This document shows positions 9,602 through 10,447 of a stretch of DNA of 64,000 nt, piece after piece (the stretch's first letter is position 1; each line of letters begins with the position of its first letter). The translations under genes were made by a program, and so were the position numbers. The notes under the pieces are model-generated. The model was not told the origin of the DNA, did no database searches, and worked only from the letters and a program-made list of their open reading frames with translations. Source of the DNA: Anaerolineales bacterium. Its GTDB lineage: Bacteria; Chloroflexota; Anaerolineae; Anaerolineales; Villigracilaceae. The DNA is taken from the NCBI GenBank assembly GCA_014860745.1, contig JACZJC010000052.1, forward strand, positions 1 through 64,000. Reading direction: 5' to 3'.

Positions 9602-9817
9602 ACTTTGAGTATAACCGCCGTCATCGTGCTGGTCGCGATTGATCAGCCGCTCGCGGACGTGGATGCGGACCACACGAGTTCTATGCATGGTGAGAAAATG
9701 TAAAAGTTGAGATGAAATCTAATTCAAACACACAGTCTTGAAGCACAATACCACACACAAATTCTTAACGTACTCTAATCGAATGACGCTAGTTTATGCT
9801 TTAGAATGTCATTACTC

Positions 9818-9910
9818 CGATGGGGAGTAGCGCCCGACTTTTTCGGGAAGAACAGCCGTCAAGACGGAAAGAGATTTCCCGGCTGTTTGAAAGAAAACGC
9901 AAGACCATCG
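9818..9910 (+). ncRNA. yybP-ykoY family Mn2+ riboswitch aptamer
   Basis: P1 CGATGG(9818-9823)/CCATCG(9905-9910); conserved GGGGAGTAGCG; P2 CCCGA/TCGGG; P3 AACAGCC/GGCTGTT with CCGTCAAGACGG; conserved 3' GCAAGACC. Confidence 0.9.
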
Positions 9911-9934
9911 CCTTCCTGGCGGTGGTCTTTTTTT
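9902..9934 (+). terminator. riboswitch expression platform terminator, mutually exclusive with P1
   Basis: AGACCATCGCC TTCCT GGCGGTGGTCT + T-tract; its 5' arm contains the 3' strand of aptamer P1. Confidence 0.88.
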
Positions 9935-9952
9935 ATTTTTAAAGGAGAAAAA

Positions 9953-10447
9953 ATGCCAGAACGAACTTCACAGGTTGTCCGTATGGGTCAGTTGAAAGGC
10001 GCGAAAATAAAAATCAAAGAAGTTAAAAATGACGGCTTGCACGAATACGTCACCATCGTCAATCGTGGAACTGTCACTCAACCCATGTCTGGCTGGGTGC
10101 TTGCCAGCCTGCGTGGGCAGGCGTTTTATCCATTTACAGGCGATTTAATGCTGGAGCCTGGCATGATCGTAAAAGTTCAGAGCGGGCAGTTGGAACCAAA
10201 AGCAACACTGGAAGAGTGGGGCGCCTTGAAAAATTTATTATGGACAATTGGCCAGGTTTGGAACAACCATGGCGATACTGCCATTTTGTTTGACGCAAAC
10301 GGTTTGGAAATTGACCGACTTTCCTATCCGCACAAGCGTGCAATGGGAAGCAGTGCCAACCGCCAAAAAATTTTGATGGGCGGCGATGGCGGTTTTAAAA
10401 TTGTCAACGATTCGCTCCCCCGATCCAAAAAAGTAACCCGTAAATAG
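9953..10447 (+). CDS. lamin-tail-domain (LTD)-like protein
   Basis: AAAGGAG RBS then ATG at 9953; IKIKEVKNDGLHEYVTIVNRGTVTQPMSGWVLASLRGQAFYPF...DTAILFDANGLEIDRLSY. Confidence 0.8.
   Translation: MPERTSQVVRMGQLKGAKIKIKEVKNDGLHEYVTIVNRGTVTQPMSGWVLASLRGQAFYPFTGDLMLEPGMIVKVQSGQLEPKATLEEWGALKNLLWTIGQVWNNHGDTAILFDANGLEIDRLSYPHKRAMGSSANRQKILMGGDGGFKIVNDSLPRSKKVTRK

What the first reader, a model, noticed from the sequence alone, without database searches (positions are those of the whole stretch)
9811..9955. Mn2+ riboswitch (yybP-ykoY) with transcription-ON architecture in front of a lamin-tail-domain gene
Sequence shows CGATGG-GGAGTAGCG, P2, P3 with CCGTCAAGACGG, and 3' GCAAGACC-ATCG, closely matching the L. 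lactis yybP-ykoY aptamer as I remember it. The 3' P1 strand (CCATCG) is also the 5' arm of an intrinsic terminator (AGACCATCGCC/GGCGGTGGTCT-T7), so ligand binding should prevent termination (ON switch). Established targets are Mn exporters, TerC-type proteins and P-type ATPases; here the first gene encodes an LTD-like protein, which I do not recognise as a known target.
Basis: partly seen in the sequence, partly recalled or inferred. Interest (0 to 1): 0.85.

Follow-up and report, generated by a model that had tools for sequence, protein, structure and literature searches.

The report
Manganese RNA switch before lamin-tail operon
A manganese-sensing RNA switch of a well-known class sits in front of a small gene set of unknown function (a lamin-tail protein, a zinc-ribbon protein and an amphi-Trp protein), and every relative of the lamin-tail gene whose upstream DNA could be read has the same switch upstream, so these proteins probably belong to the bacterium's response to excess manganese.

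Summary
Window 9814-9934 carries a yybP-ykoY (Mn2+) aptamer whose P1 3' strand is also the 5' arm of an intrinsic terminator, followed by a ribosome-binding site and an LTD gene at 9953.

Rfam RF00080 scores it only 16.5 bits (cut-off 45). The same model also leaves the validated E. coli mntP riboswitch below its cut-off (41.6). A covariance model built only from other Chloroflexota families gives 66.1 bits (whole-genome E 1e-13), against 40.5 for E. coli mntP and 23.0 for alx. It finds exactly three sites in the genome; the other two precede P-type ATPases.

The new part is the target. The LTD subfamily occurs in 10 of 57 genomes of the genus. In all 10 an aptamer lies on the same strand 38-548 nt upstream; in 7 LTD is the first gene. 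In relatives the same LTD gene shares the operon with a Ca/Mn-type P-type ATPase and once also with TerC, the classic Mn-riboswitch targets. Here it heads LTD, an Asp/His-rich zinc-ribbon gene and an amphi-Trp gene, with no transporter.

Most likely: a transcription-ON Mn2+ riboswitch controlling an accessory, non-transporter Mn-stress operon. The ligand and the proteins' function are untested.

The parts
9779..9807 (+). promoter: -35 TCGAAT 9779-9784, 17-nt spacer, -10 TAGAAT 9802-9807
   Evidence: Aligned leaders of related elements share TTGAxx / TAnAnT at about this spacing just before ACTCCGATGG; inferred, not mapped
9814..9828 (+). 5' hairpin ACUCC-GAUGG-GGAGU, an alternative to P1 that would hide loop L1
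   Evidence: In the minimum-energy fold; full pairing of the first five bases to GGAGT in 31 of 37 P4-less elements and in none of 7 P4-bearing ones
9818..9910 (+). yybP-ykoY (Mn2+) aptamer: P1 9818-9823/9905-9910, L1 GGAGUA, P2, P3 with L3 GUCAAGAC (A9861 in the place of L. lactis A41), no P4
   Evidence: Model R2 66.1 bits; model R1 111 bits; covariation; RF00080 16.5 bits
9901..9936 (+). intrinsic terminator, 12-pair stem plus U tract; its 5' arm contains the P1 3' strand
9941..9947 (+). ribosome-binding site AAAGGAG
   Evidence: sequence
9953..10447 (+). lamin-tail-domain (LTD) protein, 164 aa
   Evidence: Pfam PF00932 E 9.5e-14; 220 homologues found; low-confidence model matches lamin Ig domains best
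10519..10872 (+). double zinc-ribbon protein, 117 aa, with Asp/His-rich tract HDKDHKDDDHDDDD
   Evidence: Pfam DZR E 7.4e-9; tract present in all 5 distinct homologues found
10895..11143 (+). amphi-Trp domain protein, 82 aa
   Evidence: NCBIfam TIGR04354 36.7 bits, over cut-off; the same gene follows the P-type ATPase in relatives' Mn operons

Best explanation
The leader is a Mn2+-sensing riboswitch of the yybP-ykoY class working by transcription antitermination. With little Mn2+, the 3' strand of P1 pairs into the terminator, while ACUCC may pair with GGAGU of L1, and transcription stops before the LTD gene. With excess Mn2+, L1 and L3 dock around the ion, P1 is held, the terminator cannot form, and LTD, zinc-ribbon and amphi-Trp genes are transcribed. 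Their products are most likely accessory, non-transport factors of the manganese-excess response (for example metal buffering by the Asp/His-rich zinc-ribbon protein, or cell-envelope or nucleic-acid protection), acting beside the P-type ATPases under the genome's other two copies of the switch. Shown computationally: aptamer homology, conserved pairing, mutually exclusive P1 and terminator, conserved gene association. Inferred: Mn2+ as ligand, switching, cotranscription, protein roles.
For: Model R2, from 11 elements outside the family, finds exactly three sites in the 4.3-Mb genome: C28 (70.8 bits, E 5.3e-15), this one (66.1, 9.5e-14) and C64 (56.9, 2.9e-11). It scores validated E. coli mntP 40.5 and alx 23.0 at the right places. 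The other two sites precede P-type ATPases (C28 by Pfam, C64 by sequence similarity). Of 25 pairs, 14 show changes on both sides; 95.4% of cells are paired, falling to at most 42.4% when partners are slid. Invariant L1 and L3 letters are kept. Folding of the growing transcript gives P1 up to about 9916 and the terminator from about 9920. LTD is in 10 of 57 genomes and all 10 have the aptamer 38-548 nt upstream on the same strand. In relatives LTD shares the operon with a P-type ATPase (L045, L047, L049, L050) and in L045 also with TerC. Mechanism established for L. lactis and X. oryzae members (PMC11087558, PMC6754395).
Against: RF00080 is below its gathering score. Helix P4 is missing, although the S. 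pneumoniae mgtA riboswitch is also described as a three-way junction (PMC9495176). No expression or binding data. None of the three proteins has a known link to manganese. The terminator is far more stable than P1 in equilibrium folding (-53.6 against -35.0 kcal/mol), so switching must be kinetic, as in known ON switches.
Confidence: 0.85

Rival explanations
1. The same riboswitch architecture, but the physiological ligand is Ca2+, or both Ca2+ and Mn2+, as proposed for the three-way-junction S. pneumoniae mgtA element; the LTD operon would then answer to calcium.
For: The element lacks P4, like the S. pneumoniae mgtA element described as a three-way junction that binds Ca2+ and Mn2+ (PMC9495176); an ATPase of a related operon scores best against PMR1-type Ca2+ ATPase, though below cut-off (744 of 798 bits).
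Against: The L3 adenosine whose N7 makes the Mn2+-specific contact is kept (PMC6754395); one related operon carries TerC, a family tied to Mn.
Confidence: 0.1
2. The aptamer is a leftover of an ancestral P-type ATPase operon; LTD moved behind it and no longer needs manganese control.
For: Relatives carry LTD inside ATPase operons, while here no ATPase follows; the C28 copy of the switch drives the ATPase in this genome.
Against: Promoter, aptamer, terminator and ribosome-binding site are intact and retained in relatives whose LTD proteins are 67-97% identical; 10 of 10 genomes keep the link. A relic would decay.
Confidence: 0.05
3. A chance hairpin and terminator without an aptamer function.
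For: RF00080 is below its cut-off.
Against: Out-of-family model E 9.5e-14 over the whole genome; covariation; conserved loops.
Confidence: 0.01

Closest known systems
Lactococcus lactis yoaB yybP-ykoY Mn2+ riboswitch (PDB 4Y1I)
   Same: P1 switch helix shared with a terminator, ON by antitermination, L1 GGGGAGUAGC and L3 with the Mn-contacting adenosine, 3' GCAAGACC (L. lactis letters partly from memory)
   Different: L. lactis form is a four-way junction with P4 and controls a P-type ATPase; here P4 is absent and the first gene is LTD
Streptococcus pneumoniae mgtA Mn2+ riboswitch
   Same: Described as a three-way-junction yybP-ykoY aptamer activating a P-type ATPase (Mn2+/Ca2+) (PMC9495176)
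   Different: Target is a transporter; sequence not compared here (paper not held)
Escherichia coli mntP and alx riboswitches
   Same: Found by the same model R2 (40.5 and 23.0 bits)
   Different: Carry P4 (mntP) or long inserts (alx); targets are MntP and a TerC-family protein
The same genome's C28 and C64 elements
   Same: Same aptamer class; C28 is nearly the same leader, promoter and terminator design
   Different: They precede P-type ATPases; C64 keeps P4

Membership tests
yybP-ykoY (Mn2+) riboswitch | L1 motif GGGGAGUAGC and 3' GCRAGACC | tested here: met
yybP-ykoY (Mn2+) riboswitch | L3 loop with the invariant Mn-contacting adenosine (UCA in L. lactis) | tested here: met
   GUCAAGAC at 9858-9865; column conserved; feature from PMC6754395
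yybP-ykoY (Mn2+) riboswitch | P1, P1.2, P2, P3 helices with conserved pairing | tested here: met
   95.4% of cells paired, 14 pairs with changes on both sides
yybP-ykoY (Mn2+) riboswitch | P4 helix, four-way junction | tested here: not met
   11 unpaired nt in its place. Not treated as defining, because the S. pneumoniae mgtA member is described as a three-way junction (PMC9495176)
yybP-ykoY (Mn2+) riboswitch | RF00080 above gathering score | tested here: not met
   16.5 of 45 bits. Not treated as defining: the validated E. coli mntP element also fails (41.6) and alx was not found at E <= 0.1
yybP-ykoY (Mn2+) riboswitch | recognised by an independent covariance model that also finds validated members | tested here: met
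   R2: window 66.1, mntP 40.5, alx 23.0 bits
yybP-ykoY (Mn2+) riboswitch | P1 3' strand overlaps the terminator (transcription ON) | tested here: met
yybP-ykoY (Mn2+) riboswitch | Mn2+ binding and Mn2+-dependent readthrough | not testable with these tools
   needs in-line probing and a transcription assay
Lamin tail domain (PF00932) | profile match above curated cut-off | tested here: met
   52.1 against 34.3 bits
Lamin tail domain (PF00932) | lamin Ig-like fold | tested here: inconclusive
   best PDB matches are lamin Ig domains (E 4e-5), but the model has mean pLDDT 58

The most novel reading that the evidence does not exclude
LTD, Asp/His-rich zinc-ribbon and amphi-Trp proteins form a non-transporter manganese-response module, for example a Mn2+ buffer or protection system, under its own copy of the Mn2+ riboswitch: a functional class of target not described for this riboswitch in the papers I could search.
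Probability: 0.4. Interest if true: 0.68.

Novelty: new member of a known kind. Interest (0 to 1): 0.52.

Why it matters
The targets I could find named for this riboswitch in the open papers read here are transporters or transporter-like membrane proteins. A conserved link to a soluble lamin-tail protein gives that prokaryotic LTD subfamily a first testable physiological context and extends the Mn regulon beyond export. It also shows that RF00080 at its gathering score misses this Chloroflexota branch and even E. coli mntP, so other target genes are probably overlooked.

Tried and rejected
RF00080 at gathering score: no hit; weak at E-value threshold, explained by calibration on E. coli. Other weak Rfam hits in the leader (rnk_pseudo, freshwater-2, preQ1-II) are far below cut-off and rejected. 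Model R1 includes the window itself, so it is not used as membership evidence; R2 was built without the family for that purpose. More distant LTD proteins of the class (L056-L083): no aptamer in the stretches held. One pattern match (L011) lies inside an apparent coding region without terminator and was dropped. No LTD relatives in viral contigs. Papers with both lamin tail domain and riboswitch: none; amphi-Trp: none. The original Dambach 2015, Price 2015 and Martin 2019 papers are not held, so their target lists could not be checked.

Full report
WHAT IS THERE. The quoted motifs are all present at the quoted place. P1 is CGATGG 9818-9823 with CCATCG 9905-9910; L1 reads GGGGAGTAGC; P3 carries GTCAAGAC; the 3' end reads GCAAGACC. 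A 12-pair terminator with a T tract begins at 9901, so the 3' strand of P1 is also the terminator's 5' arm. AAAGGAG stands five bases before the ATG at 9953. The leader folds much better than shuffled sequence (z -4.9).

IS IT THE Mn2+ RIBOSWITCH? RF00080 does not reach its cut-off (16.5 of 45 bits). I calibrated that: with the same model the experimentally validated E. coli mntP leader gets 41.6 bits, also below, and alx was not found at E <= 0.1. I therefore built model R2 from 11 elements of other Chloroflexota families. It finds exactly three sites in the 4.3-Mb genome: C28 (70.8 bits), this one (66.1 bits, E 9.5e-14) and C64 (56.9 bits). It also finds E. coli mntP (40.5) and alx (23.0) at the right positions. 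On 44 aligned elements 95.4% of cells are paired, 14 of 25 pairs show changes on both sides, no shuffle reaches the covariation score, and sliding the partners destroys it. That alignment was fitted to the structure, so the counts lean towards it. The L3 adenosine that makes the Mn2+-specific contact in L. lactis (A41, PMC6754395) is A9861 here by alignment of UCA.

A DIFFERENCE. Helix P4 is missing: 11 unpaired bases stand in its place, and 37 of the 44 elements compared lack it. The junction is three-way. This has a precedent: the S. pneumoniae mgtA riboswitch is described as a three-way junction responding to Mn2+ and Ca2+ (PMC9495176). Of these 37 elements 31 also begin with ACTCC, ACTCT or GCTCC, fully complementary to GGAGT of L1; none of 7 P4-bearing elements do. 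That 5' hairpin is in the predicted OFF fold and may help the terminator win without ligand. This is inference, and ACTCC could also be conserved as the transcription start.

HOW IT SHOULD WORK. Folding the growing transcript gives P1 with the aptamer until about 9916; from about 9920 the terminator takes over. Ligand held by L1-L3 docking would keep P1 closed and allow readthrough, as shown for L. lactis (PMC11087558) and X. oryzae (PMC6754395). The promoter is inferred from conserved -35 and -10 boxes.

THE TARGET. The first gene is an LTD protein (PF00932, E 9.5e-14); the predicted fold is of low confidence but its best matches are lamin Ig domains. It is followed by a double zinc-ribbon protein with an Asp/His-rich tract, present in all five distinct homologues found, and an amphi-Trp protein (TIGR04354). 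In a survey of 57 genomes of the genus, the aptamer occurs in 56 and LTD in 10; all 10 LTD genes lie 38-548 nt downstream of an aptamer on the same strand, seven of them as first gene 38-42 nt after the aptamer model's end. With about 1.8 aptamers per genome of about 4 Mb, a random gene would fall there about once in 7000 times (my estimate; the genomes are related, so the ten are not independent). In an independent genome collection 11 LTD loci were found; 10 have the aptamer upstream, and the eleventh is cut 50 nt before the gene. One of these, L050, is not among the ten, and there the aptamer lies about 1450 nt upstream behind two other genes.

THE WIDER OPERON. In relatives the same LTD gene stands in larger operons: L045 aptamer, MpsC, LTD, carbonic anhydrase (in two frames), DedA (VTT), small membrane protein, P-type ATPase, amphi-Trp, TerC; L047 LTD, Rnk-like, DedA, small membrane protein, Rnk-like, P-type ATPase; L049 and L050 similar. 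P-type ATPases and TerC proteins are known Mn-efflux or Mn-detoxification families, and TerC-family genes are known targets of this riboswitch. The window's operon looks like a split-off accessory part with its own switch, the ATPases being under the C28 and C64 copies. Across the class the same model sits mostly before P-type ATPases, sometimes before a CaCA-type exchanger (named from sequence, not all scanned).

VERDICT. A genuine Mn2+ riboswitch with transcription-ON design, controlling a conserved LTD operon that I found described nowhere. The RNA is a new member of a known class; the target is the interesting part. Ligand specificity, cotranscription and protein function are untested.

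Noticed in passing
L050:4307-5056: A flagellar FlgE/F/G-like gene is the first open frame after the Mn2+ aptamer in one relative, ahead of the zinc-ribbon, LTD and ATPase genes.
   Followed up: partly
L047:4756-5172 and 6208-6660; L046:7881-8315: Rnk/GreA-like proteins, which elsewhere bind RNA polymerase, occur as genes of Mn2+-riboswitch operons, twice in L047.
   Followed up: partly
L045:1029-1397; L008: An MpsC-family gene (PF10057; by sequence similarity in L008) is the first gene after the aptamer in two relatives.
   Followed up: partly
L102, L104: Aptamer upstream of a CaCA/YrbG-like exchanger in another family of the class; yrbG under yybP-ykoY is reported for V. vulnificus.
   Followed up: no
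L041:1462-1558: RF00080 of Rfam 15 scores the validated E. coli mntP riboswitch below its own gathering score (41.6 of 45).
   Followed up: yes
window 11280-11570: Repeated intergenic sequence GGGACAAGGCATCACGCCGATCATAACCAC, at least two copies, downstream of the operon.
   Followed up: no
window 9814-9828: A 5' hairpin ACUCC/GGAGU competing with P1 is conserved in P4-less elements only.
   Followed up: partly
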